DNA of 11,903 nt. Origin: an uncultured delta proteobacterium. Lineage in GTDB: Bacteria; RBG-13-61-14; DRUE01. The DNA is taken from contig CAIYYW010000367.1 in assembly GCA_903930515.1 (NCBI GenBank), positions 1-11,903 of the forward strand. Reading direction: 5' to 3'. The notes under the pieces were generated by a model, which had not been told where the DNA came from, ran no database searches, and saw only the letters and a list, made by a program, of their open reading frames with translations. Every line of letters starts with the position of its first letter. Position 1 is the stretch's first letter. This document shows, in pieces, positions 1,097 through 10,336 of this stretch. A program made the translations under genes and the position numbers.

Positions 1097-1270
1097 GCAG
1101 AAACATCGTTTTCACCGCCACTCCGTCTGGCTCGCCGCAACCTCACAGCATAACTATTTTTCGCCATTACCCTTTTCCTCCTGGCCCGAAGCGGCCCAAT
1201 CTATCTTCCATTGATCTAATCGTCAGCATAAATGGATTTTTCACCCGCCACGGTCCGGCAATTTCCACTC

Positions 1271-1437
1271 TGGTTCAGCGGGAAATGAGAAGTCCCGCTT
1301 TTCCTTAGCGACCAAGGCTTGCCTGCCCACACCTTTGTTTCCGCCCTGTGGGCGGAGTTTTTTTCAGGTGCGTCCCGCCGGATTATCCCTTGGCGGGTTG
1401 CCCCCCCGGCAGAGCCGCCTCCAAATTCACCCGACAT
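1271..1437. repeat. structured dispersed repeat, copy A (short form)
   Basis: About 167 bp nearly identical to 3140-3376, apart from a 70-nt segment present only in copy B (absent between 1368 and 1369 here). It contains three predicted stems: AGCGGGA/TCCCGCT (1277-1283 with 1293-1299, 9-nt loop); CCGCCC/GGGCGG (1341-1346 with 1350-1355) followed by seven T; and CCCGCC/GGCGGG around an inner GGAT/ATCC. I see no terminal inverted repeats or target duplication and no open frame worth calling. Both copies lie in intergenic DNA in the same orientation. The element type is not recognised: it could be a REP/MITE-like non-autonomous element, an RNA-structure element or a mobile terminator. Confidence 0.85.
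1341..1364 (+). terminator. intrinsic-terminator-like hairpin in repeat copy A
   Basis: A 6-bp all-G/C stem CCGCCC-TGT-GGGCGG is followed after two bases by seven T (1358-1364) on the plus strand. The form is that of a Rho-independent terminator, but all neighbouring genes run on the minus strand. It would therefore stop plus-strand transcripts: antisense RNA, or an RNA starting in or near the element. Copy B has the same structure at 3211-3234. Confidence 0.55.
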
Positions 1438-1686
1438 ATTTTGATTAAGCTCCCTCGCTTTTCCAAAAGAACAGGGTGAAGCCTCCGTTCCGATACCATT
1501 TCCATTTGGAGAAACAAAAAAGTTTTTCATTCTTTAGCCCGCGTTTTTTTAGAATTCAAAATTGTCCCGATCACGACTGGAAAATTTCACGCTAAAACCT
1601 GTCTTAAAGCAAGCCCCGTAAGGATATTTAAGCAGCATGAGGATTCCCTTTATCAATCTGTAATCGAATGTTCATTTCGCAGCGGC

Positions 1687-3117
1687 TTAGTTCGGCATAG
1701 CTTTCAAGATGTTCGCTACGAAATAGTCGTGGTCCCAATTCTTTTCTTCGTCGAAAGTCTGGCCGAGCCGGACGATGATGGTTTTCCGCGACGGGACTAT
1801 GGTTATGAATTGCCCTTCATGTCCCCATGTGCTGTAGATGTCGGCAGGGCAGTTTGGCAGCCACCGGTCTTTTCCTTCGCTGTTCAACCAGAATTGCGCG
1901 CCATATCCCTGGTATGTTGAAGTCGGCGTGCGGGTGTATTGCACCCAACCCTCGGGCAGAATTCTTTCTCCGTTCCAGACGCCGTCGTTGTAATAAAGGA
2001 GGCCGAACCTGGCCCAGTCTCTCGCGGTGGCGTACATAAATCCGGCCCCGACCATCGTGCCGGACGGGTCGGGCTCGATCAATGCGCTGCGCATGCCCAG
2101 CTTATGGAATAACTCCCTGCGAGGGAAGGACAGATAGTCCTGGAAAGAGCCTCCCACCGTCTCTCGGATTATGCGCGACAATAGCATGGTGGTTCCGCTC
2201 GAATATGAAAATTTCTCGCCGGGATTGGCCGCGAGGGGTTTTTGGGCGGCAAATGCCGCCATGTCTCTCGTGGTAAAATACATAAAGCCCGCGTCCGTGT
2301 CCGGATTCTCCTCATAATCCTCCTGGAACTCGAGACCGCTGCTCATGCGAAGAAGCTGATCGGTTGTTATCTTCCCGCGCGGGTCGCCTGGAGTCTTCCA
2401 TTCGGAAACTGAAGCGGGTTTGTAAATATCCAGCTTCCCCTCACGGACCAGCACTCCGATCAACGCGCTGGTAACGCTTTTGGTCATCGACCACCCTAAA
2501 AAGCGAGTTTCTTTTGAATACCCACTCGCATATCGTTCGGCGACTATTTGCCCGTCGTACAATACGATCACGGCCCGCGTTCTGACCGGGTGCTCCGTTT
2601 CGTGTTCGCTGAAAGCCCAATCCAACGCGCGCTCTAATTGCTTCTCGTCGATTGCAACGGCGGTGGACGATTCGGACGAGACATCCCCCATCGGCCACGG
2701 AGAATTTTCATTGTTCGCTGGAGGAGCAGGAAGCGCAACATCGCATTCCTTCCTGAACTCATCCTCCGATGAATCAATCACAAGGGTGCAGCCGCAATCA
2801 CCCCGGTAAAGAGCAGTTTGCCTGAAAAGGAAACCAAAAACATAAGCGTCAACGGATTTTTCTTCATAATTGACCCGGCCGCGAATCATGTTGTTCCGCA
2901 TCAGCTCAAGGTCCTCGTTCCAGAGTGAATCGGGTTGGCGTCCCGACACAAAAACACCGGAACAAAGCATTTTGGCGGCGTATCCCGTGCCGATAGGCGC
3001 GCTCCTTAATAGGGTTCGGATGTCATAATCTTTGGGCGCAAAAAGTATCATTGCGATCAACCCCAAAAAGAGAAAGACCAAAACCAACCCAATGATTTTT
3101 ATCTTGTTTTTAATCAT
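1687..3117 (-). CDS. membrane-anchored serine hydrolase, class-C beta-lactamase family
   Basis: A 476-residue member of the beta-lactamase/penicillin-binding-like family (PF00144; CubicO/6-aminohexanoate-dimer hydrolase type), acting as a serine amidase, esterase or peptidase, probably in the periplasm. Residues 7-27 form one hydrophobic anchor with a short basic N-terminus. An N-terminal region of about 125 residues with Cys52, Cys108, Cys110 and Cys125 precedes the catalytic domain. The active-site SxxK motif is S210-M-T-K213, the Y-x-N position reads Y305-S-S, and the third motif is GHEG (His433). Asn is missing from the second motif, as in many esterase or amidase members, so beta-lactam resistance is unlikely. 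The ATG is preceded by AAGGAG only two bases away and by GGGGAG at 10 bases. It lies 22 bp after repeat copy B and no clear promoter was found. The natural substrate cannot be inferred. Confidence 0.9.
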   Translation of the reverse strand: MIKNKIKIIGLVLVFLFLGLIAMILFAPKDYDIRTLLRSAPIGTGYAAKMLCSGVFVSGRQPDSLWNEDLELMRNNMIRGRVNYEEKSVDAYVFGFLFRQTALYRGDCGCTLVIDSSEDEFRKECDVALPAPPANNENSPWPMGDVSSESSTAVAIDEKQLERALDWAFSEHETEHPVRTRAVIVLYDGQIVAERYASGYSKETRFLGWSMTKSVTSALIGVLVREGKLDIYKPASVSEWKTPGDPRGKITTDQLLRMSSGLEFQEDYEENPDTDAGFMYFTTRDMAAFAAQKPLAANPGEKFSYSSGTTMLLSRIIRETVGGSFQDYLSFPRRELFHKLGMRSALIEPDPSGTMVGAGFMYATARDWARFGLLYYNDGVWNGERILPEGWVQYTRTPTSTYQGYGAQFWLNSEGKDRWLPNCPADIYSTWGHEGQFITIVPSRKTIIVRLGQTFDEEKNWDHDYFVANILKAMPN

Positions 3118-3139
3118 GTCTCCTTTTCTCCCCCTGTCT

Positions 3140-3376
3140 TGGTTCAGCGGGAAATGGAGAAGTCCCGATTTTCCCTAGCGACCAAGGCTTGCCTGCCCAC
3201 ACCTTTGTTTCCGTCCTTCGGGCGGAGTTTTTTTCAGGCATGAAGGGAATGATCGAGCCGAAGGTTTTATCAAGGCGGGGTAGAATGGCCTCCCCGTCCT
3301 CTTCCCGATGCGTCCCGCCGGATTATCCCTTGGCGGGTTGCCCCCCGGCAGAGCCGCCTCCATTTCACCCTGCCAT
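3140..3376. repeat. structured dispersed repeat, copy B (long form)
   Basis: Second copy of the element at 1271-1437. The left arm (3140-3238) and right arm (3309-3376) match copy A with few changes, and a 70-nt segment at 3239-3308 is extra. That segment has its own inverted repeats (CGGGG/CCCCG, and outer GGGAA/TTCCC). The element nearly fills the gap between two minus-strand genes: it ends 21 bp after the flavoprotein stop and begins 22 bp before the serine hydrolase start. Its frames (for example minus strand 3175-3363) have no ribosome site and are not called. It may lie in the 5' leader of the serine hydrolase if the genes are co-transcribed. Confidence 0.85.
3211..3234 (+). terminator. 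intrinsic-terminator-like hairpin in repeat copy B
   Basis: Stem CCGTCC-TTC-GGGCGG with a T-tract at 3228-3234 on the plus strand. Relative to copy A one pair changes from C-G to U-G and the loop changes from TGT to TTC, so pairing is kept. It faces against the flanking minus-strand genes. Confidence 0.5.
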
Positions 3377-3397
3377 TTGGGGTGATGGATTTAAAAA

Positions 3398-5449: not shown

Positions 5450-7003
5450 ATGGAAAAAGAAAGCCTGAAATCCCGGTGGAAGAGATGCCTGATGGTTTGT
5501 TTTTGGATGCTCGGGTTTGGGGGACTGGCCGTCATTCCCGCGACAAAAATCACGGGCGCCGAGTCGTTTCCAGCCAATGCTCCGGCAACAATGATCCCTC
5601 CGGCCGCCCCGAATGCGTGCGGAAACCTGACCCCGGAAGAGGTCTACGCCCGGCTGAAAAAGGAGACCTTCTCTCACAACGGCTACACCGCGACCTACTA
5701 CCATTCCACCGAGCGGGGCAAGAAACACGAGATTTTCGCGCGCGGCTCCCTGACCGGAAAATATCTTCAAAAACCGGTTATGTTTTGCGAGAAGCGCCTT
5801 TCCTCGGCCACGAGCTTTCCCGAGCAGGCGGGGGTTGGGGAACAAGAATGTTATTCGGGCAAGGACGACCTCACCCGGATCCTGATGCCCGGCGCCTATC
5901 GCGCCTTGGGTGTGGTCACGATGTTTCCGGAGGACCCCCAGGCAAGTTATTTGAATGGCGAGAACAATAATAATACCGAGGTCTGGGCCTGGTTTAAGAC
6001 CTGGGACCGGATGCTGGAAGGCGGACAGCTCAGCGCCAAATGCGCGACGCGCAAGGGCAAGCCGGCCTGGGTGCTGGTCTTGGTCCGGGGCAAAAACCCG
6101 GACCCGCTCTACCACCACAATGAGATGCATATCTGGGTGGACCCCGAACTTTGGTTTCCGGTCCGGGTGGAAAAATATGTGCCCAACGATCCCAAGCCCG
6201 TGGTCGTTTATGAATTTGAACAGTTGAATTTGGACGCGCCGCTTAAGGAAAAGGACATCGGCTTTGAGGGCATTGCTCCGAAATGGAGCCTGGTCGGGGC
6301 GCCGGGCGGACCCCGGCTGAACGGCCTGGGGCAGCAAGAGCCGGTTCTACAGGACTATCCGACCTTGGATCCAAACAGCTTTGTTGTTATGCTTGACCAG
6401 GCCCTGGCCGATCTGAAAGATTACGCCGCGGACCTGACCTTGGAACTCAAATACCACCGCTTGCGCCAATACCGGCAGGATCAGTTTTGGTTCATCCGGC
6501 AGAACAATTCATTTTCCGCGCTCACCAAACATATTGAGGCAAACTACCTGCAGATCAACAGCGGCGAGAATTTCCGGACCATATATGATCCGGCCAGAGA
6601 CAACCTGCTTTATGTGCTTCCCGCAGGGGTATATAAGTTTATGGGCGAGCAGACTTTTCCTCTGGACGACCCCCGTCTCTTCAGCGCCCTGGGCGACAAT
6701 ATCTATGGCCTAAACTTCTTCGCCATCCGGGACGAAATGAAACGCTGGCTCGCGATTGCGGAGCATAAAAAAGCGGAGCAGGCCGCATACGGCGATCTCA
6801 AAGGTCCCTGGCTGGAACTCACCCGCAAGAGCCAGGGCATCCCGGCATATCCTACAGTGATGCGGCTAATGTTAGATGAGCAAACGCGTTTGCCCGACCG
6901 TTTGGAATACCGCGGCTATGACGACCCCAAAGCCTTCCTTTCCATTCGCTTCTCCAACACTAAAATCAATCCCGGAATCAAAAGCGAGAATCTCTGGAGG
7001 TGA
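5450..7003 (+). CDS. exported protein with two tandem LolA/DUF1571-like domains
   Basis: A 517-residue protein of unknown function. A basic stretch (KSRWKR) and a hydrophobic segment at about residues 12-32 form a signal peptide or anchor, so it is probably periplasmic. The mature part has two similar halves (about 60-272 and 305-505). In half 1, D-D-L-x4-M-P-G-A-Y (139-150) is followed by TMFPEDP and then MHIWVDPELWFPVRVE (226-241). In half 2, the counterparts are D-N-L-x3-L-P-A-G-V-Y (384-395), TFPLDDP and MRLMLDEQTRLPDRLE (471-486). Both anchor pairs are 245 residues apart. The D-x-E/Q-x3-P-x-R-x-E strand resembles DUF1571 and LolA/LolB-type half-barrels, suggesting binding of a lipid or envelope component (inference). 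Start: GGAGG seven bases before ATG 5450 is far better than the in-frame GTG at 5426. It stands alone, converging on the transporter gene. Confidence 0.8.
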   Translation: MEKESLKSRWKRCLMVCFWMLGFGGLAVIPATKITGAESFPANAPATMIPPAAPNACGNLTPEEVYARLKKETFSHNGYTATYYHSTERGKKHEIFARGSLTGKYLQKPVMFCEKRLSSATSFPEQAGVGEQECYSGKDDLTRILMPGAYRALGVVTMFPEDPQASYLNGENNNNTEVWAWFKTWDRMLEGGQLSAKCATRKGKPAWVLVLVRGKNPDPLYHHNEMHIWVDPELWFPVRVEKYVPNDPKPVVVYEFEQLNLDAPLKEKDIGFEGIAPKWSLVGAPGGPRLNGLGQQEPVLQDYPTLDPNSFVVMLDQALADLKDYAADLTLELKYHRLRQYRQDQFWFIRQNNSFSALTKHIEANYLQINSGENFRTIYDPARDNLLYVLPAGVYKFMGEQTFPLDDPRLFSALGDNIYGLNFFAIRDEMKRWLAIAEHKKAEQAAYGDLKGPWLELTRKSQGIPAYPTVMRLMLDEQTRLPDRLEYRGYDDPKAFLSIRFSNTKINPGIKSENLWR

Positions 7004-7222: not shown

Positions 7223-8125
7223 TCATTTTGTCTTTTCCAGTTCCTCTTGCCTTCTGCCAAGCAGGAATCCGGCCAGGATGATGAGCAGGGCGCCCACCAC
7301 AATTAACACCCCGGAGACGGTTTTGGGCGGGGTGAGGGAGAAGACGAAGAAATATACCAGGATGGGTGTGATCTGGACGGAGATTTGCTGGACCGGGATG
7401 ATGTTGCTGGCCTGTCCGTATTTGAACGCGACCTGGATCTGGGAGAAGGCGATCAGGTTGGAGAGGGTGAGGATTACGGAGGCGGCGATGAAGAGCACGA
7501 CCTGCAGGGAGTTGCCTTTTCCCGCGAGCACGATGGTGATGATGGCGGTGAGCGGGCAGATCCAGAAGTTGGAGAGGGAGAAGAGGAATCCGTTGGAAAA
7601 GCCCATAATGATTCCTTTGCGCTTTGGGCTCTTGAGGGAGACAAGATGGAAGGCCAGGCAGGAACCGATCATTATTGCGGTGAAGATGGCGATCCGGAGC
7701 ACGGTGTTTGGCGAGGCGAGCGAAGCGCGGACTACTTCAATGTCAATGCCCAATTCGCTCAGACCGAGCAAGGCGATTCCGATGATCATCAGGAATATGC
7801 CGGCGTATTCGGGCAGGCTGAGTTTTTCTCCCATCAGCTTGACCGAGCCGAGCGCGAGCACGATCAACCCCGCGGCCATCAGCCCCGGGACCAAAGCCGG
7901 GCCGATCATAGCCTGCGCGGCCACGAAGGCGATCATTCCCACCACCACCTGCAGGAACAGCCCGAACAGCCAGAGCGGGTTTTTGAGCAGCCTGCGCAGG
8001 AAGCCCCGGTCGCGGCATTCGGGCGGGACCTCGTTGACCACTTTTTTCTGGAGCAGGACGCCGAGATTGTTGATGATGCCGCTCAGGATCGCGAGGGCCA
8101 CGCCCAGTATGTATTTGAAATCCAT
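7223..8125 (-). CDS. DMT/EamA-like (NIPA-like) integral membrane transporter
   Basis: A 300-residue, very hydrophobic protein with about nine to ten membrane helices, in the cytoplasmic membrane. Approximate helices are 6-25, 50-71, 75-95, 105-122, 140-165, 172-200, 206-226, 245-268 and 272-292. Arrangement and length match the drug/metabolite transporter superfamily. The opening segment SGIINNLGVLLQKKVV also recalls the NIPA/magnesium-transporter branch, where a G-x-x-L-Q-K-K stretch follows helix 1. Substrate is unknown; candidates are a small metabolite or a divalent cation. The ATG at 8125 is well supported by AGGAG five bases upstream. It is transcribed away from the Gfo/Idh/MocA gene from a shared 152-bp region and converges with the tandem-domain gene. 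Confidence 0.82.
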   Translation of the reverse strand: MDFKYILGVALAILSGIINNLGVLLQKKVVNEVPPECRDRGFLRRLLKNPLWLFGLFLQVVVGMIAFVAAQAMIGPALVPGLMAAGLIVLALGSVKLMGEKLSLPEYAGIFLMIIGIALLGLSELGIDIEVVRASLASPNTVLRIAIFTAIMIGSCLAFHLVSLKSPKRKGIIMGFSNGFLFSLSNFWICPLTAIITIVLAGKGNSLQVVLFIAASVILTLSNLIAFSQIQVAFKYGQASNIIPVQQISVQITPILVYFFVFSLTPPKTVSGVLIVVGALLIILAGFLLGRRQEELEKTK

Positions 8126-8277: not shown

Positions 8278-9378
8278 ATGTCGGAAAAACCAATCGGAGT
8301 CGGTCTGATCGGGTGCGGCAATATCGGGCTGCTCCATGCGGCCTCGCTGTCGCATATCGCCGGAGACGGGGTCTTGATCCGGCCGGTGATCGCGGCGGAC
8401 CTGAACGCGGAGAACCGGGAGGAAGTCGCGAGCAATTGGAAATTCGAGCGGCTGACCGCGGACCCGAATGAGGTCATTGCGCACCCGGAGGTGGATGCGG
8501 TATATATCTGCACGCCCACCTTCACCCACCGCGACCTGATCTTTTCCGTCCTGTCCGCGGGCAAGCACCTCTATTCCGAAAAACCCCTGGCGCCTGCCTT
8601 TGAGACGGTCAAGGAAATCTGCCGGGCGGTCCTGTCCGCGCCCATCATCGCTCAGGTCGGTTTCCAGATGCGCCATAACGCCATGCACGCGAAGGTGAAA
8701 AATTTTGCGCAGACCGGCGAGATCGGCAAGCCGATCGGTTACCTTTACCGCGACGACGAATGCTGGCCGACCACGGAATTCTCTCCGTTTGCCAGCGCCT
8801 GGAGGTCGCAGCGCAAGTTCTCGGGAGGCGGCCCGCTGATTGAACACTCCATCCACGGGATTGATCTGTTGTCGTGGATGTTCGGACCGCCGGTGCGGGT
8901 GGCGGCCGCGACCCGGAGCGTGTTCGGGTATGACATTGAAGATGTGGCCGCGCTGACCATTGAACACGAATCCGGCGTGGTGGGGAACCTCATAACCATT
9001 TACGGCGGGGTGGAGGGCCGGGAGGAAAGCCGGTTTGAAACCTTTTTCGAGAAGGCCACCATTGAGATCACCTGGGGGGTGATGGTGGAGAGCGAGGAAA
9101 ACTCATTCCGGATCACCAGGTCCGGAGAGGCGCCCGAGAATGTCGCGTTCAGCAGGATTTTGGAAGAGCGACTGGCGGCGCTGGGCATCGGCCTGCCGCC
9201 TTTTTTCTGGAACGAATTGGCCAGCCGGGATTTCTTCAAGTGCATCCGGACCGGGCGCAAGGCTTCGCCCGGGTTTAAGGATGGGCTGATCGCGCATGCC
9301 ACAGTTGAGGCCGCGTATCGTTCGGCGCGGGAAAAGCGGATGGTTGAACTTAAGGAACTGATTAGCGACTTTACTTAA
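8278..9378 (+). CDS. Gfo/Idh/MocA family NAD(P)-dependent oxidoreductase
   Basis: A 366-residue cytoplasmic dehydrogenase of the glucose-fructose oxidoreductase/inositol dehydrogenase/MocA family, acting on a sugar, cyclitol or sugar-nucleotide hydroxyl with NAD(P). The Rossmann fold opens with GVGLIGCGNIG (7-17, motif G12-C-G14-N-I-G17). YICTPTFTH (76-84) precedes the family's signature EKP (101-103, in YSEKPLA), whose Lys is catalytic. The substrate domain has GGGPLIEHSIHGIDLL (183-198); H193 fits the conserved active-site His, with E189 where Asp is common. Length is normal. I chose ATG 8278 (AGGA seven bases upstream) over an upstream in-frame TTG at 8248. It is driven by the consensus promoter at 8202-8230 and overlaps the phnD-like gene by 8 bp, tail to tail. 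Substrate cannot be told from sequence, and there are no sugar-pathway neighbours. Confidence 0.92.
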   Translation: MSEKPIGVGLIGCGNIGLLHAASLSHIAGDGVLIRPVIAADLNAENREEVASNWKFERLTADPNEVIAHPEVDAVYICTPTFTHRDLIFSVLSAGKHLYSEKPLAPAFETVKEICRAVLSAPIIAQVGFQMRHNAMHAKVKNFAQTGEIGKPIGYLYRDDECWPTTEFSPFASAWRSQRKFSGGGPLIEHSIHGIDLLSWMFGPPVRVAAATRSVFGYDIEDVAALTIEHESGVVGNLITIYGGVEGREESRFETFFEKATIEITWGVMVESEENSFRITRSGEAPENVAFSRILEERLAALGIGLPPFFWNELASRDFFKCIRTGRKASPGFKDGLIAHATVEAAYRSAREKRMVELKELISDFT

Positions 9379-10336
9379 GCGGCTGGTTTTTGGGCAGGAA
9401 ATTTTCCAGCTCGCGGATGTAATCAAAGTCGCTGTCCTGTGCCGGGGCGAACCCTCCCATTTGCATTTTGGCCAGGTCTTTCTTGCTCACCGAGAACAGG
9501 GCTTTCAAAAACTCGTCTCTGAATTTGCCGGAAATATCCTTGCGGGCAACTATGGGCACGCCCGGGACCAGGTCGCTTTGCCAGAGAATATTGAACTGAC
9601 CCGGACTTAACTTGAGCGCGGTTACGGAGCGGACAAAATCCATATCATTGGTCGCGGCGATGTCATAAATCCCTTTGGCCACCCCTTGCACCGCGGCCAA
9701 ATGGCTCCCGGCCAGAACCGTCTTGGACGCGAACGAGGCCGGGGTTTGTTTCCGCTCCCGGATGAAATAGACATTCGGGATCAGGAAGCCGGAGCTGGAA
9801 TCGGGATCGGTGAACGCGAACACTTTCCCCTGGGCCTGGTCCAGGGAGGTGATCCCGGACTTTTTGGAAGAGATGATGATGCAATGATACCCGGGCTTGC
9901 CGTCCACCGACAACTCCACCGCAATCGCCTTGGCCCCGGTCAGCCGGGCCGCCTCTACATAATTGGCCGGGCCCATATAGGCGAATTCCATCTTATTGGA
10001 CTGGAGCGCCTCAATCAGGTTCAGATAACTGTTGGGCACCACAATCTTGACCTTGATCCCCAGGGTTTTTTCCAGATGCGCGATCAGCGGCTCAAACTTC
10101 CGCCTGGTTTGTTCCGGACCCAGCAACGGGATGAAGCCGATGGTGATTTCTTTGGGAGCAGGCAAAGCTGAAAATTGCGCGCTGGTTTTCCCGGGAAAAA
10201 ACTGGCAAAGCAATAGCAGCGATAAAGACAAACCCAGGCTGAATAAAATGGGAACAGGAAAAATCCTGCCCGCGCCCGCGTTTTTGGCTTCGGGTTCAGC
10301 CGGATCGTATTTTCTCGCGCCTTCCCTTGCGGTCAT
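9371..10336 (-). CDS. PhnD-type phosphate/phosphonate periplasmic binding protein
   Basis: A 321-residue substrate-binding protein of the PhnD family (PF12974), which captures phosphonates, phosphite or related oxyanions for an ABC importer, or acts as a sensor. A hydrophilic 24-residue leader precedes a hydrophobic segment (28-47) with possible cleavage after TSA (53). The mature part begins EITIGFIPLLGPEQ (63-76). It has FAYMGPANYVEA (118-129) and the diagnostic TDPDSSSGFLIP (176-187) that shapes the ligand pocket. The 24-residue extension before the signal core is unusual, and the ATG has AAGGAG 12 bases away; an in-frame CTG one codon earlier is the only near alternative. No permease or ATPase gene is in the window, so it is an orphan here. 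It has its own promoter at 10369-10397 and overlaps the 3' end of the Gfo/Idh/MocA gene. Confidence 0.88.
   Translation of the reverse strand: MTAREGARKYDPAEPEAKNAGAGRIFPVPILFSLGLSLSLLLLCQFFPGKTSAQFSALPAPKEITIGFIPLLGPEQTRRKFEPLIAHLEKTLGIKVKIVVPNSYLNLIEALQSNKMEFAYMGPANYVEAARLTGAKAIAVELSVDGKPGYHCIIISSKKSGITSLDQAQGKVFAFTDPDSSSGFLIPNVYFIRERKQTPASFASKTVLAGSHLAAVQGVAKGIYDIAATNDMDFVRSVTALKLSPGQFNILWQSDLVPGVPIVARKDISGKFRDEFLKALFSVSKKDLAKMQMGGFAPAQDSDFDYIRELENFLPKNQPLK

What the first reader, a model, noticed from the sequence alone, without database searches (positions are those of the whole stretch)
1271..3376. Two-copy structured intergenic element, same orientation, in consecutive gaps
Copies at 1271-1437 and 3140-3376 share near-identical arms of about 99 and 68 bp but occupy gaps next to unrelated genes. 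Conservation is limited to the element; the DNA around it in the two gaps is unrelated. It has no coding capacity, no terminal inverted repeats and at least three stems. I cannot match it to a named riboswitch, REP, MITE or attC site. It may be a lineage-specific repeat family or a family of small RNAs.
Basis: seen in the sequence. Interest (0 to 1): 0.65.

Follow-up and report, generated by a model that had tools for sequence, protein, structure and literature searches.

The report
Transposase-less relatives of IS110 guide-RNA region
The two repeated stretches are copies of a small noncoding element found in at least three bacterial phyla, whose conserved half matches the region of an IS110-type jumping gene where its guide RNA should lie, but they carry no transposase gene and so look like hitch-hiking mini-elements.

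Summary
Copies A (about 1267-1437) and B (about 3136-3377) are the only two in the own genome, 94-95% alike. B is the full-length form; A lacks an internal 70 bp. The family is not lineage-specific. Its 48-bp end occurs five more times in the related genome RBG_13_61_14 and three times in two genomes of another phylum, one copy there being full length. Its other arm (about 70 nt) is 84-87% identical to the noncoding region right behind an IS110-family DEDD transposase on an Acidobacteriota plasmid. An apparent empty site in Granulicella places that region inside the 1.5-kb insertion sequence. In IS1111-type members this is where the target-choosing bridge/seekRNA is encoded. Best reading: non-autonomous, MITE-like derivatives consisting of an IS110-type noncoding end, presumably moved by a recombinase supplied elsewhere. 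Not shown: transcription, a partner recombinase, guide pairing. Five of seven copies in the phylum end 12-32 nt before a start codon, so recruitment as a leader RNA remains possible. No Rfam family matches.

The parts
1267..1437 (-). Copy A of the element (internal ~70-bp deletion relative to B)
3136..3377 (-). Copy B of the element, full-length form; starts about 20 nt after the stop of the FAD oxidoreductase gene and ends about 18 nt before the ATG of the serine hydrolase gene
   Evidence: full-length alignment to the G173 copy, z 22
1367..1434 (-). Right arm of A = 5' part of the minus-strand RNA; homologous to the noncoding region behind an IS110-family transposase
   Evidence: nhmmer with the right-arm profile; pair counts
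3307..3371 (-). Right arm of B, same homology; closing helix GCAGGGU/AUCCGGC
1267..1313 (-). Conserved 48-bp left end of A = 3' end of the minus-strand element (...TCCCGCTGAACCAG)
   Evidence: covariance model R3, 57 bits
3136..3183 (-). Conserved 48-bp left end of B
   Evidence: covariance model R3, 62.5 bits
3239..3308 (-). Segment present in B and absent from A; aligns with the interior of the C53 and G173 copies, so it is a deletion in A, not an insertion in B
1341..1364 (+). Intrinsic-terminator-like hairpin plus T run inside A, plus strand (CCGCCCTGTGGGCGGAGTTTTTTT); shared by B and G002 C28 but not by other copies
   Evidence: sequence; alignments
3211..3234 (+). Same terminator-like hairpin in B; its G-U pair favours the plus strand for this hairpin only
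   Evidence: sequence
1687..3117 (-). Serine hydrolase (PF00144) gene lying between A and B; its 77% ortholog in the congener G001 has no element upstream

Best explanation
A and B are copies of a small non-autonomous mobile element. It corresponds to the noncoding end (NCR), where bridge RNA/seekRNA is encoded, of an IS110-family insertion sequence of the IS1111 type, without the transposase gene. Shown: a dispersed family with unrelated flanks; homology of its 5' part to the NCR of a transposase-bearing IS; a conserved minus-strand RNA fold in that part. Inferred: that it is transcribed on the minus strand, gives a guide-like RNA, and was moved in trans by an IS110-type DEDD recombinase acting on its ends. 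In the own genome one copy entered the gap before the serine hydrolase gene and the other lies in the next gap. A later lost 70 bp.
For: Same 48-bp end at 7 places in 2 genomes of the phylum with unrelated flanks and at 3 places in another phylum (44, 36, 32 bits). Full-length homology B versus the G173 copy, z 22, and B versus C53, z 10. Right arm versus Acidisarcina plasmid: 84% over 74 bp, E 5e-11, 87% with a consensus query, E 1e-15. It starts about 20 nt behind the stop of a transposase with PF01548 and PF02371 that has the IS1111-type GL-P----SG motif (GLDPVHQDSG). Granulicella holds the two flanks joined, with AAG shared at both ends, so a 1508-bp insertion in Acidisarcina contains transposase and arm together. 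NCR downstream of tnp is the IS1111 arrangement (PMC11187229, PMC11208160). Closing helix 94% paired with three double-sided changes, 10 of 500 shuffles reach the covariation score, slid controls far lower (five sequences). Orthologous serine hydrolase in G001 lacks the element, and upstream homology stops at the element edge.
Against: Only one transposase-bearing relative was found; the link to IS110 rests on it. Beyond the first 75 nt the similarity of B to that NCR is not significant (z 1.1), that of the G173 copy modest (z 3.1). Six of the ten copies keep the 48-bp end but no detectable right arm. Terminal inverted repeats weak. No target or donor complementarity beyond chance. Copy numbers are low (2, 5, 2, 1). 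No clean empty site for A or B on both sides.
Confidence: 0.58

Rival explanations
1. A recruited cis-regulatory leader: the element, of IS110 NCR origin or not, is kept because its RNA lies in the 5' untranslated region and controls the gene behind it.
For: In B, C28, C41, C53 and C125 the element ends 12-32 nt before an ATG (and sequences); 9 of 10 copies precede a gene on the same strand. Strong TTGACA promoters lie 132-286 nt upstream of the motif in four G002 copies, and in C53 the predicted start coincides with the element's 5' edge. The 48-bp end is conserved even where the interior is not.
Against: Genes are unrelated in function; the G001 ortholog has no such leader; the G173 copy faces a convergent gene; the hairpin near the ribosome site has no covariation; B has no promoter of its own in front.
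Confidence: 0.2
2. [quoted passage not shown]
For: IS1111 members do target repeats, and such repeats then appear downstream of the transposase gene.
Against: In Granulicella the joined flanks contain no arm; arm and transposase sit together inside one 1508-bp insert with normal IS dimensions (ISEc11 is 1443 bp).
Confidence: 0.08
3. A plus-strand small RNA ending at the internal terminator, antisense to the leader of the gene behind it.
For: A, B and C28 share a terminator-like hairpin with 7-8 T on the plus strand; in B the hairpin keeps pairing through G-U only on that strand.
Against: The terminator is missing from C53, C41, C109, C125 and the G173 copy; the covarying fold is on the other strand.
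Confidence: 0.07
4. A plain local duplication of a unique intergenic sequence within this contig.
For: Only two copies in the own genome, adjacent and in the same orientation.
Against: Homologs at unrelated places in three other genomes and in another phylum.
Confidence: 0.04

Closest known systems
Noncoding region (bridge RNA / seekRNA gene) of IS1111/IS110-family insertion sequences (PMC11187229, PMC11208160)
   Same: Right arm is homologous to the NCR directly behind an IS110-family transposase; same place and strand; length about 240-260 nt compared with 213 nt; structured RNA
   Different: No transposase gene attached in any of the ten copies of this family; no guide match to flanks demonstrated; not in Rfam 15
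MITEs (non-autonomous derivatives of insertion sequences)
   Same: Short, noncoding, dispersed, tied by homology to an IS, absent from an orthologous site
   Different: Terminal inverted repeats weak or absent; no target duplications seen; the retained part appears to be a guide-RNA region rather than just two ends
QMITE2 of Coxiella burnetii (PMC5896051)
   Same: Small noncoding repeat associated with IS1111-type elements
   Different: QMITE2 is the target into which IS1111 inserts; here the arm lies within the IS insert itself

Membership tests
IS110/IS1111 family insertion sequence (complete) | DEDD transposase gene (PF01548 + PF02371) | tested here: not met
   No such gene in the window; tblastn of the Acidisarcina transposase finds nothing significant in the window or around the other copies. 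The elements are therefore not filed as complete IS110 members.
IS110/IS1111 noncoding region (bridge/seekRNA locus) | Homology to the NCR of a transposase-bearing element, on the same strand, between transposase stop and element end | tested here: met
   one transposase-bearing example only
IS110/IS1111 noncoding region (bridge/seekRNA locus) | Conserved RNA secondary structure | tested here: met
   helix 1 94% paired, three pairs with double-sided changes; five sequences only
IS110/IS1111 noncoding region (bridge/seekRNA locus) | Guide segments matching the target and donor flanks | tested here: inconclusive
   longest own-flank matches at chance level; one 8-nt match in Acidisarcina, p 0.04 uncorrected
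IS110/IS1111 noncoding region (bridge/seekRNA locus) | RNA is transcribed and bound by the recombinase | not testable with these tools
   needs RNA-seq and co-purification
IS1111 group | Subterminal inverted repeats of 7-17 bp | tested here: inconclusive
   B p 0.0005, G173 p 0.06, A and C53 and the Acidisarcina IS not significant
MITE | Terminal inverted repeats and target duplication | tested here: inconclusive
   no target duplication seen, but IS110-type elements make none (PMC11187229)
MITE | Dispersed copies at unrelated sites, absent from an orthologous site | tested here: met
Integron attC site | Terminal RYYYAAC / GTTRRRY core sites | tested here: not met
   by reading the sequence: the ends read GGGTGAA and TGAACCAGGACA, with no such cores; no integrase was looked for
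Known Rfam RNA family | Score above a family's gathering threshold | tested here: not met

The most novel reading that the evidence does not exclude
Free-standing IS110-type bridge-RNA genes, detached from any recombinase, have spread over several phyla as units of their own and in part settled directly in front of start codons, where the guide-like RNA now acts as a leader or recruits a recombinase in trans.
Probability: 0.15. Interest if true: 0.75.

Novelty: new variant of a known kind. Interest (0 to 1): 0.48.

Why it matters
IS110 bridge RNAs choose both donor and target DNA. An element family that seems to keep only that noncoding region would show that the RNA locus itself can be the mobile, non-autonomous unit, and would give natural variants for comparing guide loops with insertion sites. 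The papers found here describe transposase-bearing elements and engineered mini-elements, not such natural ones; the search covered open-access papers only.

Tried and rejected
Rfam at gathering and permissive thresholds: no family. c-di-GMP-I, cobalamin and TPP riboswitch resemblances recalled from memory: no Rfam support. attC and REP/RAYT: core features absent. sigma-54/ECF promoter or operator reading of the 48-bp end: no consistent match by eye. Terminal-inverted-repeat search over 340 nt: mostly not significant. Whole-leader fold stability: z -0.6 to -2.5 on the gene strand without consistent strand preference, so stability alone proves nothing. Covariation in the gene-proximal hairpin: none. 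Guide-flank matching: chance level. Viral contigs patterns and transposase search in viral contigs: no convincing further members. The exact-pattern scan of 85k genomes was too strict: it returned only the two G002 places and missed the diverged copies (versus 64). NCRs of five other plasmid IS110 elements (Salinibacter, Vibrio, Pantoea, Deinococcus, Serratia): no right-arm match.

Full report
Observation. The window is contig C367 of genome G000. It belongs to a phylum for which only three genomes are held: G000, the congener G001, and G002 = Deltaproteobacteria bacterium RBG_13_61_14. Copies A and B are real: arms of 98 and 62-64 bp at 94% and 95% identity with unrelated DNA around them. They are the only two in the own genome by blastn and by three covariance models. 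No Rfam family matches.

Relatives in the phylum. blastn found one relative in G002 (C28) and part of another (C41). A model of the shared end (R1) then gave three weaker hits in G002 (C109, C125, C53; E 0.007-0.29). They proved to be real: the match continues into bases that were not in the model, giving an ungapped 48-column alignment apart from one deleted base in A. C53 also carries the second arm and aligns with B over about 200 nt (z 5.3), which shows that the 70 bp 'extra' in B is original and A has lost it. G001 has no copy; its 77% ortholog of the serine hydrolase lacks the element, and upstream homology to the window stops at the element's edge.

Relatives beyond the phylum. Model R3 (48 bp, seven copies) searched in 290 genomes hit G173 (44 bits) and G026 twice (36 and 32 bits), two members of one family in another phylum. 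The G173 copy is full length (L182 2206-2459) and aligns end to end with B (z 22). blastn of it against plasmids gave one hit of note: Acidisarcina polymorpha pACPOL3, 84% over 74 bp, E 5e-11, and 87%, E 1e-15 with a consensus query.

Link to IS110. In Acidisarcina the arm begins about 20 nt behind the stop of an IS110-family transposase, on the same strand, with domains PF01548 and PF02371 and the GL-P----SG motif that PMC11187229 gives for the IS1111 type. Granulicella plasmid pACIX903 carries the two flanks joined: Granulicella 2996-3035 and 3033-3088 match Acidisarcina 5843-5882 and 7391-7449, with AAG shared by both. The insert in Acidisarcina is thus about 1508 bp: 235 nt, transposase, 213 nt noncoding with the arm inside. 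In IS1111-type elements the long noncoding region lies downstream of the transposase gene and encodes the seekRNA/bridge RNA (PMC11187229, PMC11208160). This is one example only; five other plasmid IS110 elements did not show the arm.

Structure. The hairpin in the 48-bp end shows no double-sided changes; changes break it. The right arm, read on the minus strand, forms a closing helix of 7 pairs around a stem-loop. In five sequences the closing helix is 94% paired, with three pairs changed on both sides (for example G-C to A-U twice in Acidisarcina), and the stem-loop adds one (U-A to C-G). Ten of 500 shuffles reach the covariation score, and slid controls drop from 89% paired to 26-48%. One row (C53) was entered with a 21-nt insertion removed by hand, and five sequences are few. 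Overall fold stability of the whole leaders is not decisive.

Position. In the phylum the element ends 12-32 nt before an ATG in five of seven copies, and nine of ten copies precede a gene on the same strand; the tenth (G173) faces a convergent gene. Four G002 copies have TTGACA promoters upstream. This may reflect target choice or selection, and keeps a leader function open.

Interpretation. The simplest account of all this is a transposase-less, MITE-like element made of an IS110-type noncoding end. That the elements are moved by a recombinase in trans and that the RNA is made are inferences. Movement of a transposase-less mini-element with recombinase and RNA supplied in trans has been shown experimentally for ISEc11 (PMC11187229). 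Guide-to-flank matches were not above chance, so function as a bridge RNA is not claimed as shown.

Noticed in passing
G000:C322:3978-4456: Broken paralog of the window's FAD oxidoreductase: only residues 7-90 and 459-533 remain, the middle is missing.
   Followed up: no
L171:2795-4258 (G002 C109): The gene behind this copy is a strong PD-Lambda-5_A homolog (phage defence, E 1e-55).
   Followed up: no
L182:1292-2009 (G173): A nucleotidyltransferase/HEPN-like gene pair (judged by sequence) directly precedes the full-length element.
   Followed up: no
L049:4880-5500 (G002 C41): Repeat ATTGGGGTCARARCCTTGCTTYAAAC in both orientations around the element; part of it is shared with C28.
   Followed up: partly
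L183:3800-3890 and L184:1-98 (G026): Two copies share a further, nearly identical stretch next to the 48-bp end (GCATGATCGAGTGCTAACTACTACTCGAGATGCTAAC), one at a contig end, suggesting recent copying there.
   Followed up: no
window 9371-10336: Phosphonate-type periplasmic binding protein (PF12974) without visible transporter partners in the window.
   Followed up: no
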